From Ancylostoma caninum (taxonomy: Eukaryota; Nematoda; Chromadorea; Rhabditida; Ancylostomatidae): a stretch of 64,000 nt of DNA. Location of the stretch: NCBI GenBank assembly GCA_037903475.1, contig JBAJFG010000559.1:62001-126000 (forward strand), read 5' to 3'. Below are positions 14,846-35,714 of this stretch, piece by piece (positions within the stretch are counted from its first letter, which is position 1; each line of letters starts with the position of its first letter). The notes under the pieces were generated by a model that was given only the letters and a program-made list of their open reading frames with translations, made no database searches and was not told the DNA's origin. The position numbers and the translations under genes were made by a program.

Positions 14846-17800
14846 GTTATTGTTATTATTATTATTATTATTCTCTTGTCTACTTTCTGATGAATTAATA
14901 CAAGAAAGAACTTTTCAAAACAGTGATTCTCTCAGTCTACTCTTCAGATCGTTGTAAGATTCATAGAACAACTATAAAAGTAAACCAAGCCCTGCGTTGG
15001 GAAAAGTTCTCGAGGAGAAAATATCCAGCAAAAGACAAAACGACGAAATTTGGAAGTATAGTACGTTTCATCATGGATGATAGTTGGGAAAACAGCAGAG
15101 AGAAAAAGAACGCTGGAAAGTGTGCAGCAATTGGAGAGGAATGAGAGGAAAGCAGGTTATCCGCACCGTTACTCAACCATTGTTGCGTTTGAAACAGACT
15201 ATACCTTAACTGAATGACAACTTCACGAATAGGTTTCGGCACAATTCCCTCCCGCAGATTTTCTTTCTCTGTGGTTGCACCAGCAGCAGAAGAAGTCGTC
15301 CCGAGTGAAGCACTGAGACCTGCAACAGTGATCTCTTCAAGGGATCATGATTATATCTCATTACTGTCCCTCAAGCCACTGCGCTCCTCCGTGGACAATG
15401 TATTACAAATGGACAAAGGCGAGTTCGTTGCAACAAATTCTATAGGAACTTATCAGTGGAAATTATTTGGTATCAAAACGAGAATCATTTCCGAAATATG
15501 TTCGCTCAGGAGACCCCAATGAAGGCTGAAACAAATGCACACACCTGCTGTTTGCGTAGTTCCTCCGAGACCGAGTGATGGCGTCGTTGTTGTTGGAGCC
15601 ACACCTTAATATTGAGATACAAAAACCTAGGTAACATTTTTGAATAATGGGTTGAGCCTCTATGATACAGCACTCACCACTTAGTGAAGTAGTAGCGCCG
15701 AATAGCGAAGGTGTTGTTGTTGCTGTTGTTTTAGCCCCAAACAACGGTGTCGTTGTACTGGTGCCGAGCAAACCTGTCGTTGTCGTAGTAGGTGGTTTAC
15801 TTCCAAACAGCAACCCCCCAGGAGCCGTGCTTGCGGTTGTTGTAGTAGCACTGAACAAGCCGCCAGTGGGTTTCGGAGCGGTCAACGATCCTAGGAGACT
15901 TGTTGACGTTGTTGTCGGAGTCCCGAAGAGGCTCGGGGCTGCAGTAGACGTTGTTGTTGTCCCAAACAATGGTTGTGTTGTGGTTGAAGCAAGAAGGGAA
16001 GCAGTTGTAGTAGCCGTCATGGTTGCTGCCCCAAACAGTGGCGTTGCAGCTGGGGCCGACGTTGTCGCAGCACTGCTTACTCCAAAGGAAAGTGTAGCCG
16101 TGGGAGCTGGTGCAGCCATACTTGAAGTCGGCACAGAAGCAGTCGTGGTAGCAGTACTAGCACCAAAAAGAGGTTGCGCAGCAGAGATTGTTGTGGCTGC
16201 GGAGCCTAGCAAAGATGCGGAAGCAGTAGAGGTGGTAGACGCAGCGGCACCAAAGAGTGGGACAGCACCAGATGCGGCAGTTGTGGTACCAAACAAAGAA
16301 TTTGTAGCAGCAGTCTTGGTGGTTGCATCGAACAACGATGGAGCACCAGTAGAAGTTCCACTACTCGCTCCAAAAAGCGAAGAGGTAGTGTTCGGAGTAG
16401 TGGTAAGAAGGGATGGTGCAGAAACAGCAGCGGTAGTGGTAGTAGTCCCAAAAAGCGATGATGTTGTGGAGGTACCTGCAGTAGAACCAAACGCTGGAGC
16501 TGATGTCGTTGCGGAGGTAGTTCCCGTGCCGAAAAGCGAAGCTGTAGATGTAGTCGCAGTTGCACCAAAAAGTGATGTTCCCGCAGATGTAGCAGGAGCA
16601 ACAGAAGAACCGAACTGCGGGGTAGTGGAAGAAGGTGCTCCAAATAATGATCCTGGTGCCGACGTTTTATGAGTGGCTGTACCAAACAACGGTGCAGATG
16701 ACGCATTTAAGGAGCCGAACAAGGGCATAGAAGTTGTAGTTGCACCACCAAAGAGACCCGCAGATGCCGTTGTGGTTGTGGTTCCTCCTGATGAAGACGT
16801 TGCTGAAGCCGCTCCAAGCGAGTTTGTCGTCGCAGCATTATTATTTGCACCAAACAAAGAGGTAGTAGTCGATGAACCGAATGTTGGTTTAGAAGCTCCA
16901 AAAATAGATGAAGAAGATGTGGTGTTGGCAGAAGCCTGACCAAATAGGCCAGTAGATGGTGCTGCCGCTGATCCAAATAGCGTCGTTGTGCTGGTTGTTG
17001 CTGTCGAATTTCCGAACAGCCCCGTGTTAGATGCTGCTGTTGTTGTTGAACCAAACGCAGGCGCTGAGGGAGCGGTTGTATTAGCAGAGGATCCGAACAG
17101 TCCGGAACTTGATGAAGTCGTGGTAGCTGTTGGGCCAAACAACGAACTGCCTGTCTGCTTTGCACCGAACAGTGATGGTGCACCAGTCGAAGTCGTTGAG
17201 GTGGATCCGAAAAGTGATGGAGCAGTACTGGTGGTGTTTGTTGAGGACCCAAAAAGAGAACCAGTTGTAGTCGATCCTCCAGAAAACAAAGAGGCTCCCG
17301 TAGAAGCGGAACCTCCAAATATTGATGAAGCAGTAGTGGCTGTGGTTGTCACAGAAGATCCGAATAGCGACGAAGCTGTTGTGGTACCTGAAAATAGAAT
17401 AATTTTCACAAGAGTGCATACTGCATATCTAAATCTTTATATTTCCATAGACGCATGTAATGAATTTGCTCATGATACACTAATATGTGTGCGGAATGTG
17501 CTTCGCTTCACACAACGAATAAGTTACCAGCGTTCCTCTGAAGACAATTTTTCTTCGAATAGATCATGTGTAAGACCATTCAGGATGCGGGTCAATATGA
17601 GGCGACTAGAGCTTTTTGAGAGAGAAGATAATACCTACACAAAAAGAAGCGTTGATCTTAAATGCAGTGTCCAAACTCAGGGTAAGTTTGGAGCGTTGGG
17701 CATCAAAATAATCTAGGGGCACTGCTGGTTACAAGGAATATGTAATACAACTCGAAACTGTCAAAAATCCCCTTCTTGAACAGCTTCATTTTGGAGAAAT

Positions 17801-29127: not shown

Positions 29128-29573
29128 TACAACCCTTCTGCGCAATCGGTAGAAAGCTTTCGAGCGCGCCCAGCATGCGGCGCGTGCGCGGCGCGGCCTT
29201 CTCATGGCAGCCGTCTGGAGTCCTCGCTCAGCTGTTCGAGGACTCGGTTCGTCAAGATTAAGCCCAGGTGAGTGTTATTCTTTCATTTTTTTTGCCACTA
29301 TTCGGCTAGTTCTGCCCCAAAATTTCAAAAAAAAAAATTCGCCCAAATTTCGCCCAGGGGGGTCATTTGGGGTGCTGATCAGGAATATCGTATCCATTTT
29401 AAACCGTAACCCCATTCTTGTAGGGTTACGGTAAGGTTACCCCAGGTTATCTGGTTATCTGGGGTAACTTTACCGTAACCTACAAAATGGATATGATATT
29501 CGTGATCAGCACCCCAAATACCCCTCCCCTAGGCAAAATTTGAGCGAATTCCGTGAGGTACCGTATCTGGGGT

Positions 29574-29923
29574 TGTAAACGGTGGCAAATTCCCATGACT
29601 AGGCGTGCAGATGTTTCCTTAGATAGGGCATTCCGTAGCTTCTTCTGCGCCGCTCTAACTCTTTATATTCAGGGCGTGGCAACGACAGGGGAGAGCAGAG
29701 GATGCGCCGACTCCGAGCGGTCGACCAGCCGGTGGGCCGACTGCCCAGCTCCAACCGAACCCCCTTCGCCAGCCGTCCCCCTCGCAACGACGTCCGTGAT
29801 CTACCATGTGTATTCCTGTGTGCCAAGCCTGCGTGCAGACCCCTGACAATAAATCTATATAATCCTAGTGTATTCACTGTATTTCTGGGACGTCGATGCT
29901 TCCACGGCGCCACGTTGTTTACT
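29574..29923 (+). repeat. 5' LTR
   Basis: 350 bp. Contains ACTCTTTATATTC near 29657 (possible TATA region) and GACAATAAATCTATATAATCC near 29845 (a candidate polyadenylation AATAAA). Near-identical to the 3' LTR. Confidence 0.93.
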
Positions 29924-29940
29924 GGTAGCAGCGAGTGGTT
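29922..29940 (+). other. Candidate primer-binding site
   Basis: TGGTAGCAGCGAG follows the 5' LTR at once. TGG at the LTR edge would pair with a tRNA CCA end. The donor tRNA was not identified. Confidence 0.5.
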
Positions 29941-29979
29941 TCGCCATCGCTGACGGCGAGAAATCTGGAAGTGCGAAGG

Positions 29980-31553
29980 GTGAGTTTGCAAGGTTTATTT
30001 CGGCTCTGTTTGAGCAGACTCAAAACTGGCCATTTTGTTTCTGTTTCCGCCGAAAGAAAGACCTTTGAGTTGACGGCGGCGCAGCTCTCTCCACAAAGAG
30101 CTGCAGTTTCCCATGGCACATGCTTTCATGATTTGAACCGTGTTCGCCCTTTCGAAAATTTCAGCTTCTTTGTTAATGAAGCGAACACAGGGATGCATGA
30201 ATCATGCGATACTGTAACTCACTTGCGAGTAGATTTGAATAGGGACTAGTGAAGTTTTTGAAGTGCACGTGCAGAGGTTTTGTGAACGAAGTCCCCGGGG
30301 ACCTGATCGGTCAGCTGCAAAAGAGTATGAGGTTTTTTGGCACCAGATGTTCAGTGATAGAAGTGTGCGCACACTTGGAGAATTTGTGGAGCGGTTTTTT
30401 TTGAAGTGGAGAAAAGTGATGTCGAGTTCCGGAACTGAGAATTTTGAGAAGTTTATGGTGCAGATTTGAGGAATTGGAGGTGAGTAATTTGAGAAATGAG
30501 AAATAGTAATGGAATTGGTGCCTATGTATGAGTGAGTTTTTTCGCCCGCGGTGCAAAGTTCTAGTTGTCGAGCAATTCTAAAGATGAGAAATTGATGAGT
30601 GGAGTTGATTTTTGATTTCTGCCAGTATGGATTTGAATTCCTGGCAAGATGCTAATGGCATATGGCGATGAGTATCGCAGCGCAACTTTGATAAGTGCGG
30701 TATCAGGTCACTCTGGATGACCTCATTGTTTATGGCGCAAAGGCCTGCTGGCCATATCCATATCGTTCGAGTTTTGAGTACCTCCTATGGCTAAACCGCC
30801 CGACCGTCCCAAACAGTTATCATTCTAAGGCACTGCTAGCCGGTCGCATATTTCATTTTGATCCTGTCTACCTTTTCTTTTCCTTCCTGTTGCGGACTTT
30901 CGCTTAGAAATCCTATGTCCACTTGATTCTCTTTTAGTTTTCTCTTCCTTCTGTTGGTATACTGAGTATCTCTGCGCCTATTCCTTCGCAAGTACATAAC
31001 TACACTTAAAGAACGTTTGATCTTTCTCACAGCACGCATTTTTGATCCGTTGCCGAGACTTTCCCATCGCGCTGGTCCGAGATCAATGACAATGTAAACA
31101 TTTTGCACAAAGAACCCTTGTTCCCATGCATGCTTTCTCACCCGCGCAAAAGATTCTAGGCTTGATAGAGACTTGTTTACATATTTTTAAAGGCACTTTC
31201 CGAGATCATCATTCATGTCTGAACTTTTTATTCCTTAGTTAGGCATGTGGCATGACTACAGTAACCCATGCCGGCGTACAGTTAGGCCCCGCCCCTTGGT
31301 CTGAGTTCACCAATGGAACATTAAAGCTGGTGAAGCCCCGCCTAGGTCACAGTCTTCGCTTCTGCTCAGCCCTGGGGTGCTTCCCCATTCACTTGTTCTC
31401 CTCTTGACTTATTTGAATATAAGTTGTGACATCATAGAGCTTCATCTAGGTATTCGTTTCATCGCTCATTCATCCATGTTGGTCTCGAATCGTCCCGTTT
31501 TCTTTTATTTCTTGATGATCCATCAGTAATTAATAATGACCTTTCGCTTGCAG
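29980..31553 (+). other. Possible leader intron between 5' LTR and gag ATG
   Basis: A good donor (AAGG/GTGAGT at 29980) lies just after the primer-binding site and a good acceptor (TTTCGCTTGCAG ending 31553) lies three bases before the ATG at 31557. The 1.57 kb between them has no continuous frame and no gag-like reading. Splicing would place the ATG close to the cap. This is an inference from splice-site quality and the lack of coding sequence. Confidence 0.4.
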
Positions 31554-31556
31554 ATA

Positions 31557-31736
31557 ATGGCTCCTGTGACACGTTCACGCACCCATTCAAGTGACTCTGG
31601 GGCTGATGCCCAGCGTCCCCTCGGACCTGACGGCCCGACTCTCGCGAACCCTAACGGACCTCGCGGACACGGACCCAGTCCATGGAAAGCACCCGAAGGC
31701 GCTGAGGGACGCCGCGGCCCAGGCAATTTCGAGTAG
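31557..31736 (+). pseudogene. Gag N-terminal stub
   Basis: A frame of about 60 codons starting MAPVTRSRTHS, Gly/Pro-rich, and ending at a TAG at 31734-31736. A Thr/Arg-rich start of this kind is common at the N-terminus of nematode LTR-element polyproteins. No capsid or zinc-knuckle part follows. The pol frame overlaps it in another frame, so the body of gag and the protease appear to be deleted at about 31735. Confidence 0.5.
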
Positions 31737-33627
31737 TACTTACGATCTGGGTGCTTATCATGGATCCGAAATAGTTATTAAAACAACTACGGAAGTTCCA
31801 CCATCTCGTGTACGCCCACCGCGGATTCCAGTAAAATTCCAAAAAGAGCTGGATGCTCACATTAACAAGCTTCTTCGCGCTGGCCGAATTAAAGGGAGTG
31901 ATACTCCATGGGTTCACAATACTGTTTTAGTTAAGAAGAAGGATGGTTCACTCCGAGTTTGTTTAGATTTCCGTCCTCTTAATGATATTACTATTCCAGA
32001 TTACTATCCTTTACCTCGTATAGAGGATATTTTAACTAAAATAGCTGGTCACAAATATTATACCACTCTAGACTTAGCTTCAGGGTATATGCAACTTTTG
32101 CTTTCCCCTGAAAGCCAACATAAATGTGGTTGGGCCACACATCGTGGCATATATCAGTTTGTCTATTTGCCTTTTGGTCTCAAAAATGCTGGGGCATACT
32201 TCTCTAGAGCTATTTCTCGTATTTTAGCGGGCTTGGAAGACAACTGTTTAGCCTATTTAGACGATATAGTAATATTTAATGAAGATTTTCCGAGTCACCT
32301 CGCTTCTTTACGCAAGGTTTTCGAAAGATTTCGCTCTTTTAACATTAAAGCTTCAGGAAAAAAACTTACGGAAATAGCCCGGTCTAAAATCAACTTTTTA
32401 GGTCATGAAATCTCCGGCTCTTGCTACAGCCCCGCCGACCGGAACGTCCGAGCAATCAAGGACTTCCCAACACCGGCCAACGCCGCTCTCAGGAACCCTG
32501 GGCTCACGCTGCAGCAGGCGCGAATTCCGCGCACTACCGCGCTAGATAACAACACTAATTTCTTCTTTAGGGTTGCGCGCTTTGCCTTTGTCCGCCATGC
32601 GCAGCTATCTCAGGAGGTCTACGGCATAGTGCTCTCGGTTCCTCGCCGCGGCGACAACGCTGTTAACAACATTAGGGCTGTCTTTGAGGGCGCTCCCGAT
32701 GCAGTCGCAGTTCCACCATCGCTTTGCGACTTTGAGCTGACTACGGCCGAGGAGTACGAGATGGTGTTAGCCCATTCACGGCTCAACACGTCAACCGCCG
32801 TCCGTTTTTCGGACCCACCAGTCTCAAAGTCCGCTAGAGCTGCGTTAGCTCACGCTATCCAGTCTTTTGTACCCCTTCACCCACAGGAGGGTATCCTGCC
32901 CCTCCGCGTTTTCAAGCTTCCCCCAGCAGAACAAAATTGGTTGGCAGACCGCGCTGGGCCTTTCGAGAACTACCGTCGCGATCCCGAAGCCGCTAAGGTT
33001 CGCATGGCTCGCGTCTTTAGTGTGTCTTGCGCCGCGCTCTCTGCTATCAAAACTATCGACGACGATAGGCATAGCCATTGGGTCACTGCTTCTGTCCCCT
33101 CTATGAACGCGTACCCGATCCGCTTTGAGTTCCGACTCACGGAAATGATTTCGGAGGCCGGATGGACCGTTCAGCGTCCGGTGGAGTTGTGGGTCGAAGG
33201 TTCCCCCGAGCTTTCCCGCGCACGCGTTATGGCGGTCCAGGCGAATTCCGAGGCACGCGAGCTCAACGTCACGATTGCGGCCTACCGCGATACGGATGAC
33301 GAGCTCGTTCGCTCTATAAGATCCTATGGCCGCCGCGCGGGTCTGGACACTTTCGTGCGCCTCTGCGTGAAAATCGGTCGCATTCCCAACACCGCAAACC
33401 CTGCGCTAGAAACCATTGCCAGGAAAGAGGTGTTCCAGCACGTCGACGAAGATTCGCTCGCATATATCATCATGGACAAAGTCTATGGTGCGGACAGGAG
33501 ACATCTCGGTGACAACGAGGTGCCTTATGTGGAGGACCGAGTCGTCCACACTATTCGGGCCGTCAGATCGCTCTTACTGACGACCAACGCGACGCCCTGG
33601 GTCTGGGCAGCTGCGGACGTTCCATAG
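31591..33627 (+). CDS. Ty3/gypsy reverse transcriptase fused to a helicase-upstream region
   Basis: Open for 678 codons. Residues about 50-290 are a gypsy-type reverse transcriptase: VLVKKKDGSLRVCLDFR, the catalytic LDLASGY (about 160), FGLKNAGAYF, YLDDIVIF (about 222), and a GHEIS thumb. After KDFPTP (about 32470) the sequence changes character: no RNase H or integrase, about 385 residues of unknown, Arg/Ala-rich sequence, and clearly higher GC and C/G-ending codons than the AT-rich reverse transcriptase part. The final part leads into the helicase in a shifted frame. The stop at 33625-33627 lies within the region where the helicase Q motif is already readable in another frame. The natural start is unclear; it may be expressed as a gag-pol type frameshift. 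Confidence 0.85.
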   Translation: MTLGLMPSVPSDLTARLSRTLTDLADTDPVHGKHPKALRDAAAQAISSSTYDLGAYHGSEIVIKTTTEVPPSRVRPPRIPVKFQKELDAHINKLLRAGRIKGSDTPWVHNTVLVKKKDGSLRVCLDFRPLNDITIPDYYPLPRIEDILTKIAGHKYYTTLDLASGYMQLLLSPESQHKCGWATHRGIYQFVYLPFGLKNAGAYFSRAISRILAGLEDNCLAYLDDIVIFNEDFPSHLASLRKVFERFRSFNIKASGKKLTEIARSKINFLGHEISGSCYSPADRNVRAIKDFPTPANAALRNPGLTLQQARIPRTTALDNNTNFFFRVARFAFVRHAQLSQEVYGIVLSVPRRGDNAVNNIRAVFEGAPDAVAVPPSLCDFELTTAEEYEMVLAHSRLNTSTAVRFSDPPVSKSARAALAHAIQSFVPLHPQEGILPLRVFKLPPAEQNWLADRAGPFENYRRDPEAAKVRMARVFSVSCAALSAIKTIDDDRHSHWVTASVPSMNAYPIRFEFRLTEMISEAGWTVQRPVELWVEGSPELSRARVMAVQANSEARELNVTIAAYRDTDDELVRSIRSYGRRAGLDTFVRLCVKIGRIPNTANPALETIARKEVFQHVDEDSLAYIIMDKVYGADRRHLGDNEVPYVEDRVVHTIRAVRSLLLTTNATPWVWAAADVP

Positions 33628-35003
33628 TTGCCATTCAAGCTGCGTTTGGGACTGGTAAAACAGTACTAGGTGCGATAATTGCCGCGCGCTACGCCCTAAA
33701 CGATAAGCTGGTGATTGTCACAGCATCAACAAATGCCGCTGTTGCGCAGTTCACCAACTCCATCCTGGCAATCGAAGAGTTCCGTGGCATAGAGACAATT
33801 CGATATGTCTTGGAAGCGGCACTCCTCGAAGATGCCCCAACCACCCCGGTAGACATGCATAAATTGCTGCTCAGCCTTGGGGATGACCAGCGCACGCCGT
33901 TTGCCTCCGCAGAACGCGCCTCTATCGCAGCGTACGTACGCGGGCGCAGGCGGTATGAGGAGTTCATCCAGAACCCCGAGGGAGCACTAACCATGAGCGA
34001 GCGTGAACGTTTCGAGTTCATGATTGCAGAGCGAGATGTTTCGATCCACGTCGCCGCGATGATTCGCATGTACTTCCACTATAGGGGCCCGCGGATCGTC
34101 TGTCTGACGACTTCCTCGCTGTTGAACACCACGGCCCCGAAGGGTTGCTTCGTCGACTACCTGAACGATTTCGACGTTGTGATAGGCGACGAGGCTTCCC
34201 AGATCCCGGAGCCGGTGTTCGTAGCGATCGCCGATCGTCTGCCAGAAATTCGCCATGTGTACATAGGCGATGTGCATCAGTTGGAGCCGCATGCGCGCTG
34301 CCCGCGTTCCTCCAACCCCGCGGTATTTGGGGCGCGTAGCGTCATGAGCGCACTTACTGCCTCCGCAAGGGTACCGGTCGCCCCTCTAGTCACCACTTTC
34401 AGGGCGCATCCGTCCCTCAATGAGCTCCCGAACCGGCTCACCTACGGAGGGACGCTGGTCAGTGGTGCCGACGCAGCAGAACGCCGCCTGCTCTTCGACC
34501 TCTTCGAGTACCCGGACGAGAACTTGCCATTCTTGTTCGTGGATGTAGCAGGCACATCACAGCGTGCGGTGACAAAGTCCCACTTCAACGAAGTGGAGGC
34601 GACGGTCTGCTTGACCATTGTCACCGAACTCACAGGTAAGGGTGTTCGCGCCGACCAGATATGTGTAATCACCTTTTATAGGGAACAGTATCGGAAGCTG
34701 GCCGAACCCCTACGCGAGATGGGCATCGAGCTGTCCACGGTGGACACGGTCCAAGGACGAGAGAAAGATGTCGTCATCCTACTGACGACGAAGACTGGAT
34801 TCGACCCGGAAACTGCCGAATTTCTGGACGACCAGCGGCGTATGAATGTGGCCCTAACCCTTTCACGCCACGGCCAGTTCGTCCTGGGCCACGTAGAATC
34901 TCTGCGCCAAGTCCGCTACTGGAGTGGTGTGCTCGAGTGGGCCACTGAGCATGACGCTGTGCTTCCAGCATCGGACCTTCCCAGGTTCTTCCGCTCTGAT
35001 TGA
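33585..35003 (+). CDS. Superfamily 1 RNA/DNA helicase, UPF1/MOV10-like
   Basis: Helicase motifs appear in order: a Q-motif-like LTDDQRDAL at the start, Walker A FGTGKT at about 33645, motif Ia TASTNAAVAQF, motif II VVIGDEASQ at about 34180, motif III YIGDVHQLEP, a motif IV-like VITFYREQYRKL, motif V STVDTVQGREKDVVIL at about 34735, and motif VI-like RRMNVALTLSRH. The first ATG in frame is 33711, after Walker A, so translation probably enters from the upstream frame (a -1 relation to the 31591 frame). The motif set is complete and the frame is open to TGA at 35003, which suggests recent activity or selection. The UPF1/MOV10/ERI-6/7 group fits best; the exact subfamily cannot be told by eye. 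Intron-free. Confidence 0.85.
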   Translation, partial: QRDALGLGSCGRSIVAIQAAFGTGKTVLGAIIAARYALNDKLVIVTASTNAAVAQFTNSILAIEEFRGIETIRYVLEAALLEDAPTTPVDMHKLLLSLGDDQRTPFASAERASIAAYVRGRRRYEEFIQNPEGALTMSERERFEFMIAERDVSIHVAAMIRMYFHYRGPRIVCLTTSSLLNTTAPKGCFVDYLNDFDVVIGDEASQIPEPVFVAIADRLPEIRHVYIGDVHQLEPHARCPRSSNPAVFGARSVMSALTASARVPVAPLVTTFRAHPSLNELPNRLTYGGTLVSGADAAERRLLFDLFEYPDENLPFLFVDVAGTSQRAVTKSHFNEVEATVCLTIVTELTGKGVRADQICVITFYREQYRKLAEPLREMGIELSTVDTVQGREKDVVILLTTKTGFDPETAEFLDDQRRMNVALTLSRHGQFVLGHVESLRQVRYWSGVLEWATEHDAVLPASDLPRFFRSD

Positions 35004-35138
35004 GCAGTTTTGCCATTTTCTCCTCGATTTGGGTAAGTATTTCCACATATTTACGCACGCTTACTCATGTCCCGATAGTTTCTCGATTTTGCCTAAATGT
35101 TCCCCACACTATTTAAAGTCCGGAACGGACTTTTGTTT

Positions 35139-35149
35139 ATGGGGGGAGG
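35139..35149 (+). other. Polypurine tract
   Basis: A GGGGGGAGG run (about 35141-35149) directly before the 3' LTR, as needed for plus-strand priming. Confidence 0.75.
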
Positions 35150-35499
35150 TGTAAACGGTGGCAAATTCCCATGACTAGGCGTGCAGATGTTTCCTTAGAT
35201 AGGGCATTCCGTAGTTTCTTCTGCGCCGCTCTAACTCTTTATATTCAGGGCGTGGCAACGACAGGGGAGAGCAGAGGATGCGCCGACTCCGAGCGGTCGA
35301 CCAGCCGGTGGGCCGACTGCCCAGCTCCAACCGAACCCCCTTCGCCAGCCGTCCCCCTCGCAACGACGTCCGTGATCTACCATGTGTATTCCTGTGTGCC
35401 GAGCCTGCGTGCAGACCCCTGACAATAAATCTATATAATCCTAGTGTATTCACTGTATTTCCGGGACGTCGACGCTTCCACGGCGCCACGTTGTTTACT
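35150..35499 (+). repeat. 3' LTR
   Basis: 350 bp, same ends as the 5' LTR (TGTAAACGG to TTGTTTACT). The few visible differences are single substitutions, for example CTGTATTTC followed by T versus C. Confidence 0.93.
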
Positions 35500-35714
35500 G
35501 GGTAACCTTACCGTAACCCTACAAAATGGATACGATATTCGTGATCAGCACCTCAAATAACCCCCTTGGGCGAAGTTTGGGCGAAATTTTTTTTTGAAAT
35601 TTTGGGGCAGAACTAGCCGAATCGTGCCATTTTTTCTTTAATTGAAGTTTCTTTGAATGTGTGAGGCCTGTGGCTGACCGATATTGATCGGACAGCCCCG
35701 CGTGCCTCACTTTT

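What the first reader, a model, noticed from the sequence alone, without database searches (positions are those of the whole stretch)
29574..35499. LTR retrotransposon that carries an intact-looking SF1 helicase in place of RNase H and integrase
Seen: matched 350-bp LTRs, 4-bp target duplication GGGT, primer-site candidate, purine tract, Ty3/gypsy RT with LDLASGY and YLDDIV, then a complete UPF1/MOV10-like motif series (FGTGKT, GDEAS, GDVHQLEP, VDTVQGREKD). Known: autonomous Ty3/gypsy elements carry RNase H and integrase after RT, and host SF1 helicases of the UPF1/MOV10/ERI-6/7 group act in RNA silencing and restrict retroelements. Inference: a retroelement captured a helicase gene (transduction or template switch) and now mobilises it. 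A transposon-borne copy of a silencing-type helicase could act as a decoy, a suppressor, or a replication aid.
Basis: partly seen in the sequence, partly recalled or inferred. Interest (0 to 1): 0.9.

Follow-up and report, generated by a model that had tools for sequence, protein, structure and literature searches.

The report
Retrovirus-like element with its own helicase
In the genome of a roundworm (likely a hookworm or close relative), a family of retrovirus-like mobile elements carries its own gene for a protein resembling the cell's UPF1 RNA helicase, a gene also joined to such elements in other parasitic worm genera and predicted to help the element's RNA leave the nucleus and escape decay; the copy in this window is a broken, shortened member of that family.

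Summary
Window 29570-35503 is an LTR element: 350-bp LTRs differing at 4 sites, GGGT target duplication, PBS and PPT candidates, Ty3-type RT, then an SF1 helicase core. The helicase does not replace RNase H and integrase. Related copies in the same genome keep integrase followed by a separate helicase ORF of about 1,200-1,400 codons. The window copy lost most of gag to protease, RNase H, integrase and about 40% of the helicase ORF through two internal deletions; its RT-helicase junction is private and the rest of the helicase is split over two frames. The helicase gene itself is an old, conserved part of a nematode Ty3/gypsy lineage: integrase lies upstream in 10 of 14 loci, pol-helicase proteins are annotated in other strongyloid genera, synonymous sites are saturated while protein is conserved, and the tree shows one clade apart from the host's own UPF1 gene. 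Parent elements also hold a gB-like glycoprotein segment between gag and protease. Closest parallels: Cer1 CERV, rotifer ORF3s, viral SF1 helicases in insect retroelements. Function is inferred: RNA export/NMD evasion is most likely; silencing suppression is the main rival.

The parts
29570..29573 (.). target-site duplication GGGT, left copy
   Evidence: sequence
29574..29923 (+). 5' LTR (TGTAAAC...GTTTACT)
   Evidence: 346 of 350 identical to the 3' LTR; 41 LTR matches in the genome
29923..29938 (+). primer-binding-site candidate TGGTAGCAGCGAGTGG
   Evidence: sequence; tRNA partner not identified
29979..29985 (+). leader 5' splice-site-like GGTGAGT
   Evidence: sequence; untested, no control, looked at in the window only
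31541..31553 (+). 3' splice-site-like tract CTTTCGCTTGCAG just before the gag-type ATG
   Evidence: sequence; untested, no control
31557..31736 (+). gag N-terminal remnant, 59 codons then stop
   Evidence: DNA matches the C13 and C124 copies up to 31737
31737..31738 (.). deletion join A (gag start to sequence just before RT)
   Evidence: homology to C13 and C124 copies ends at 31737
31813..32475 (+). Ty3-type reverse transcriptase (LDLASGY, YLDDIV)
32473..32475 (.). deletion join B (RT to middle of helicase ORF), about 3 bases shared by both halves, private to this copy
32476..33588 (+). helicase N-terminal part, truncated, read in the RT frame
33513..35003 (+). ORF with SF1B (UPF1-like) helicase core, RecA1 and RecA2
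35032..35038 (+). 5' splice-site-like GGTAAGT after the helicase stop; such a motif in 7 of 8 loci tested
35115..35133 (+). hairpin AAAGTCCG-GAA-CGGACTTT upstream of the PPT
35141..35149 (+). polypurine tract GGGGGGAGG
35150..35499 (+). 3' LTR
35500..35503 (.). target-site duplication GGGT, right copy

Best explanation
The feature is a non-autonomous, internally deleted copy of a 12-14 kb Ty3/gypsy LTR element family whose fuller members carry, after RNase H and integrase, a separate ORF for a UPF1-like SF1 helicase that likely coats the element's own unspliced genomic RNA and helps it leave the nucleus and escape nonsense-mediated decay. Shown: order gag - gB-like glycoprotein segment - protease - RT - RNase H - integrase - helicase ORF - hairpin - PPT - LTR, pieced from several copies and seen in one LTR-to-LTR copy (C9); helicase core closest to UPF1/IGHMBP2; presence across strongyloid genera; strong protein-level constraint. 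Inferred: the helicase is made from a spliced mRNA (acceptor-like sites near the ORF start in most copies looked at, donor-like sites in the window's leader and after the stop codon), so genomic RNA keeps introns, ends translation far from its 3' end because the helicase ORF follows pol, and would be retained or degraded by the host's UPF1 system. An element-made UPF1-like protein that lacks the host's partners would take UPF1's place on that RNA, in the manner of Cer1 CERV or HIV-1 Rev plus captured UPF1. The window copy would use helper proteins of complete relatives to move.
Against: No RNA, protein or genetic data: splicing, expression, RNA binding and export are all untested. A UPF1-like fold does not fix the role; IGHMBP2 scores equally by structure. 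MOV10 and ERI-6/7, which act in silencing, could not be placed for lack of reference sequences. The Cer1 paper does not mention a helicase (0 occurrences). L032 has no TTTCAG near its helicase ORF start, and the acceptor scan had no control; TTTCAGG in the LTR is found in 5 of 8 loci only. An ORF break between protease and pol is seen in C9 and C79, but in C13 one frame runs from gag knuckle to integrase, so that NMD trigger is not general. The C9 copy shows no matching target duplication. The C13 copy, with the closest helicase, lacks most of RT. No copy was shown active.
Confidence: 0.45

Rival explanations
1. Same element, but the helicase acts as a suppressor or decoy of nematode small-RNA silencing, imitating MOV10/ERI-6/7/ZNFX1-type helicases.
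Against: By sequence UPF1 fits better than ZNFX1 (158 vs 79 bits); the insect cases are viral-type SF1 helicases, not UPF1-like; MOV10 and ERI-6/7 not testable here.
Confidence: 0.25
2. Same element, but the helicase is a replication or packaging aid: it clears structure or proteins from the template during packaging or reverse transcription.
For: Element helicases of several strongyloid genera interleave in the tree, so the gene stayed with the elements; a conserved hairpin next to the PPT in 13 of 14 distinct segments is a possible substrate.
Against: The helicase is a separate ORF in the intact copies seen here, so no obvious packaging route; no direct evidence.
Confidence: 0.15
3. Chance insertion of an LTR pair around a host helicase gene, or assembly chimera.
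For: The RT-helicase junction is unique to this copy.
Against: 95 helicase matches genome-wide, integrase upstream in 10 of 14 loci, joined proteins in other genera; host UPF1 is a different, intron-bearing gene at C26.
Confidence: 0.02
4. The helicase gene is a passenger kept because it benefits the host, for example in antiviral defence.
For: A clade with altered motifs exists whose member in this genome (L042/C57) has no pol, PPT or direct repeats in 9.5 kb; a defence role was proposed for insect cases (PMC6338049, passages).
Against: 10 of 14 loci have integrase upstream; constraint on element copies points to element-level selection.
Confidence: 0.06

Closest known systems
Cer1 of Caenorhabditis elegans with its CERV protein (PMC10309623, passages)
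   Same: Nematode Ty3/gypsy element with a large ORF between pol and 3' LTR, expressed by splicing; CERV is required for genomic RNA export
   Different: The paper reports no obvious homology of that ORF outside Caenorhabditis and does not mention a helicase; Cer1 has no stop between gag and pol; sequence kinship to the present ORF not tested
Insect retroelements with virus-derived SF1 helicases (PMC5563155 and PMC6338049, passages; PMC4686597, listing)
   Same: SF1 helicase carried by retrotransposons, full motif set, conserved
   Different: Mostly LINEs (TRAS, Jockey); LTR cases are fusions with Ty1/Copia proteins in Aedes and Leptopilina; helicase of RNA-virus replicase type; here UPF1-like, separate ORF, Ty3/gypsy, nematodes
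Bdelloid rotifer LTR retrotransposons with enzymatic ORF3s (PMC5408684, passages)
   Same: Extra enzymatic ORF beside gag and pol
   Different: GDSL esterase or DEDDy exonuclease; 'helicase' occurs only in the reference list
Atlas virus of Ancylostoma ceylanicum (PMC9094657, listing and passages)
   Same: Retrovirus-like element with a virus-type fusion glycoprotein in a hookworm
   Different: BEL/Pao pol and class II phlebovirus-like env; no helicase mentioned; here Ty3 pol and a gB-like segment between gag and protease
Host UPF1 (SMG-2) gene
   Same: SF1B core, QGREKD motif
   Different: Host gene has introns and lies at C26; element proteins share 24-37% identity with it over ~124 columns of AAA_12 and form their own clade

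Membership tests
Ty3/gypsy LTR retrotransposons (Metaviridae) | LTR pair with TG start, 4-6 bp target duplication, PBS and PPT | tested here: met
   Window copy: (3' LTR end is CT rather than CA); C9 copy shows no matching duplication
Ty3/gypsy LTR retrotransposons (Metaviridae) | pol order protease-RT-RNase H-integrase | tested here: met
   Met in relatives C9 and C79 (C79 pol best PDB match Ty3 Gag-Pol 385 bits); window copy keeps RT only
Ty3/gypsy LTR retrotransposons (Metaviridae) | RT of Ty3 type | tested here: met
   Window RT best PDB matches Ty3 RT, 149 and 146 bits; no RT tree was made
UPF1-like SF1B helicases | RecA pair with SF1 motifs in a UPF1-type fold | tested here: met
UPF1 proper (NMD factor) | groups with UPF1 in a tree | tested here: not met
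   AAA_12 tree: 33 element-type rows split 100/99 from 10 cellular rows; host UPF1 groups with SETX rows 95/82. Only one UPF1 row, pieced from exons, and 182 columns
UPF1 proper (NMD factor) | N-terminal zinc-binding CH domain | tested here: inconclusive
   N-terminal ~300 residues of the model mostly under pLDDT 50
MOV10 / ERI-6/7 helicases | nearest relatives in a helicase tree | not testable with these tools
   no reference rows obtained
Envelope-bearing retroelements | virus-type fusion glycoprotein | tested here: met
   Relatives only, by sequence profile: PF24664 35.1 bits vs cut-off 27 in C79, 27.7 in C9, below cut-off in C13 and C124, not listed in C160. Fold search supportive but weak: 50 listed rows all herpesvirus glycoproteins, best E 5e-12, model pLDDT 47, TM 0.13
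Cer1-like elements with CERV | sequence or structural kinship of the 3' ORF with CERV | not tested
   CERV sequence not fetched

The most novel reading that the evidence does not exclude
Strongyloid worms harbour an old lineage of complex, retrovirus-like Ty3/gypsy elements with two virus-grade extras: a class III (gB-like) fusion glycoprotein built into the gag-protease ORF, and a private copy of the cell's RNA-surveillance helicase that replaces UPF1 on their genomic RNA, a Rev-like factor made from a helicase; hookworms have in turn kept a stand-alone, motif-altered copy of that helicase as a host gene.
Probability: 0.3. Interest if true: 0.88.

Novelty: new variant of a known kind. Interest (0 to 1): 0.72.

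Why it matters
How retroelements without a Rev-type protein export intron-keeping RNA and survive NMD is open outside a few cases (recalled). A widespread, constrained, element-borne UPF1-like helicase in worms gives a direct test case, and its stand-alone relatives may show a host turning the gene back on the element. For annotation, some strongyloid 'DNA2/NAM7 helicase-like' gene models are likely element genes.

Tried and rejected
Considered and rejected: replacement of RNase H and integrase (private deletion); recent capture of a host gene (tree); chimera. No paper on an LTR element with a UPF1-like helicase in nematodes was seen in the capped listings of searches, and one search returned none (open-licence PMC text only; Repbase reports not searchable). 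PDB sequence search with the C9 glycoprotein region gave nothing better than E 0.16. The RT copy-number search did not complete, so the copy number of the RT part is unknown. No tRNA gene in the window, so the primer tRNA is unnamed. Dropped rows: one search used 15 of the 30 loci L001-L030 plus the window for the domain, and 7 loci for the full ORF (near-duplicates L033 and L037 left out); one search used 8 loci that have a strict PPT; the tree kept only database proteins whose matched stretch exceeded 150 residues, and P0029 is not in it.
Full report
What was checked. The window is G000:C111:62001-126000 of an unnamed 348-Mb genome. LTRs lie at 29574-29923 and 35150-35499 with 4 differences in 350, flanked by GGGT. 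Inside are a 59-codon gag start, a Ty3-type RT and an SF1 helicase core. The element sits inside an inverted-repeat sequence (29316-29527 against 35493-35630).

The parents. Helicase matches number 95 in the genome, a lower bound by the tool's own note; 13 of the 95 rows are stop-free in open frames of at least 1,000 aa. Some are near-identical copies (C80, C75, C588), one is the stand-alone C57 gene and one (C633) belongs to a sister family. I fetched 14 loci at 9.5-10 kb. In 10 of 14 integrase lies upstream of the helicase on the same strand; the exceptions are the window itself (L041), L039, L040 and L042. A strict PPT plus LTR-start string is present in 12 of 14, missing in L038 and L042; in L040 it follows a second helicase fragment. 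The order is RT, RNase H, integrase, helicase N-part, helicase core, PPT. The C9 copy spans LTR to LTR about 13.8 kb by the coordinates, with ORFs of 1278 aa (gag knuckle, glycoprotein, protease), RT-RNase H-integrase (same frame in L047 and L034 by coordinates), and 1400 aa (helicase). Its flanks show no matching duplication.

How the window copy arose. Against the C13 copy, DNA homology runs from the LTR to 31737 and again from 32400 on, with a switch from pol to mid-helicase at about 32473-32475, where the two halves share about three bases. Among 11 matches to the junction probe only the window is continuous; four other loci carry the halves apart, at 3.9-4.0 kb (three) and 0.44 kb (one). 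So two internal deletions made this copy. The helicase remnant begins at about codon 571 of the 1413-codon C13 ORF and is split over two frames. The C13 copy is itself missing most of RT, and the C124 copy keeps gag end and glycoprotein with no helicase match listed. Internal deletion thus recurs in this family.

Conservation and origin of the helicase. A protein search with the 1413-aa ORF gave 22 proteins, 18 of them named from strongyloid nematodes, the other four generic SF1 helicases at E 4e-12 or weaker; a profile search gave 54, 50 of them named strongyloid; only the 7,989 and 7,986 best candidates were scored. Ancylostoma and Haemonchus are both Strongyloidea in NCBI taxonomy; that the other genera belong there is recalled. 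That the host is a hookworm or near relative is inferred from the best matches (79% and 89% identity to Ancylostoma proteins over 47% and 35% of the query). Pairwise NG86 estimates: 110 of 120 helicase-domain pairs have dS of 1.6 or more or saturated; dN/dS is 0.11 for L016/L017 against L018/L020, 0.23 for L018-L020, 0.22 for window-C13; the other near-identical pairs gave 0 to 0.67 from very few changes; for the full ORF 20 of 21 pairs are saturated and L034-L035 gives 0.10 at dS 2.2. The AAA_12 tree (43 rows, 182 columns) splits 33 element-type rows from 10 cellular rows at 100/99, with worm species interleaved among the elements; host UPF1 (C26) groups with SETX rows, and DNA2 and the IGHMBP2-like C603 gene lie on the cellular side. 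Labels of C26 and C603 were checked against PDB. The cellular rows are few and MOV10, ERI-6/7 and ZNFX1 are absent.

Cis signals. A hairpin with an AAGTCCG/CGGACTT-type stem lies just before the PPT in 13 of 14 distinct segments (perfect stem of 6 or more; 5.0% of shuffles). One stem pair is A-T in most and C-G in three segments of one lineage, one compensatory event, and is broken in L040. A donor-like GGT[AG][AGT]GT follows the helicase stop in 7 of 8 loci (3.7% of shuffles), and TTTCAGG lies in the LTR of 5 of 8 (1.4%), not in the window, L031 or L044. Acceptor-like TTTCAG lies within 16 nt of the open-frame start in L034, L035, L036 and L044, farther in for L031, and not in L032 (no control). 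Together they predict a spliced helicase mRNA and a 3'-UTR intron whose removal deletes hairpin, PPT and U3, leaving only unspliced RNA fit for reverse transcription. This is a prediction; no RNA was seen.

Glycoprotein. Between the gag zinc knuckle and protease lies a further coding segment. In C79 PF24664 (Monjiviricetes fusion glycoprotein) scores 35.1 against cut-off 27, in C9 27.7; in C13 and C124 it is below cut-off and in C160 not listed (kinship there by eye). A signal-peptide-like start was seen by eye in C9 and C124, with no predictor run. The fold is low confidence (pLDDT 47), yet the 50 listed Foldseek rows are all herpesvirus glycoproteins, nearly all titled gB (best E 5e-12, TM 0.13). 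Thirteen of 13 protein matches to the C9 gag-glycoprotein ORF are named strongyloid. The window copy lost this part (one search found no gag-glycoprotein match).

Mechanism. Two published facts frame the inference: in Cer1, CERV from the same position is required for genomic RNA export (PMC10309623, passages), and HIV-1 recruits UPF1 for export of its genomic RNA (PMC4693258, abstract). On genomic RNA here the helicase ORF makes a very long 3' UTR behind pol, and C9 and C79 have separate gag-protease and pol ORFs, both expected NMD triggers; in C13 one frame runs from knuckle to integrase, so the second is not general. An own UPF1-like protein on the RNA is the simplest fit. I give the identity of the element about 0.95 and this role about 0.45; silencing suppression remains the main rival.

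Novelty. SF1 helicases in retroelements are known from insects, including fusions with Ty1/Copia proteins (PMC5563155 and PMC6338049, passages; PMC4686597, listing only), and enzymatic ORF3s from rotifers (PMC5408684, passages). A separate, conserved UPF1-like helicase ORF in Ty3/gypsy elements of nematodes was not seen in my searches. Hence a new variant of a known kind.

Noticed in passing
L047:1736-5569, L048:433-4560, L045:4395-6500, L046:2310-4538, L049:1-2625: gB-like (class III) glycoprotein segment between gag zinc knuckle and protease in the parent elements, an unusual place for an envelope gene; over the Pfam cut-off in two of five copies.
   Followed up: partly
L042:2935-6639 (C57); P0011, P0014, P0029, P0034: Helicase clade with altered motifs (TTFR to SFTAH, QGREK to QNSHN); L042 has no pol, PPT or direct repeats in 9.5 kb and is 77% identical to an A. 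ceylanicum protein, with relatives in Necator and Oesophagostomum: candidate co-opted, possibly inactive gene.
   Followed up: partly
window 35115-35133 and relatives: Conserved hairpin directly upstream of the PPT with one compensatory base-pair change.
   Followed up: partly
window 35032-35038 and relatives: Conserved 5' splice-site-like motif just after the helicase stop codon; predicted 3'-UTR intron ending inside the 3' LTR.
   Followed up: partly
C633, C437, C245, C70, C418, C622 (L052, L055, L063-L066): Second multicopy family of UPF1-like helicase ORFs (up to 1261 aa), sister to the element clade; carrier unknown.
   Followed up: no
window 15463-17436, minus strand: 657-aa open frame rich in SLFG-type repeats, likely a nucleoporin gene.
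   Followed up: no
window 29316-29527 and 35493-35630: The element is inserted in an inverted-repeat, MITE-like sequence.
   Followed up: no
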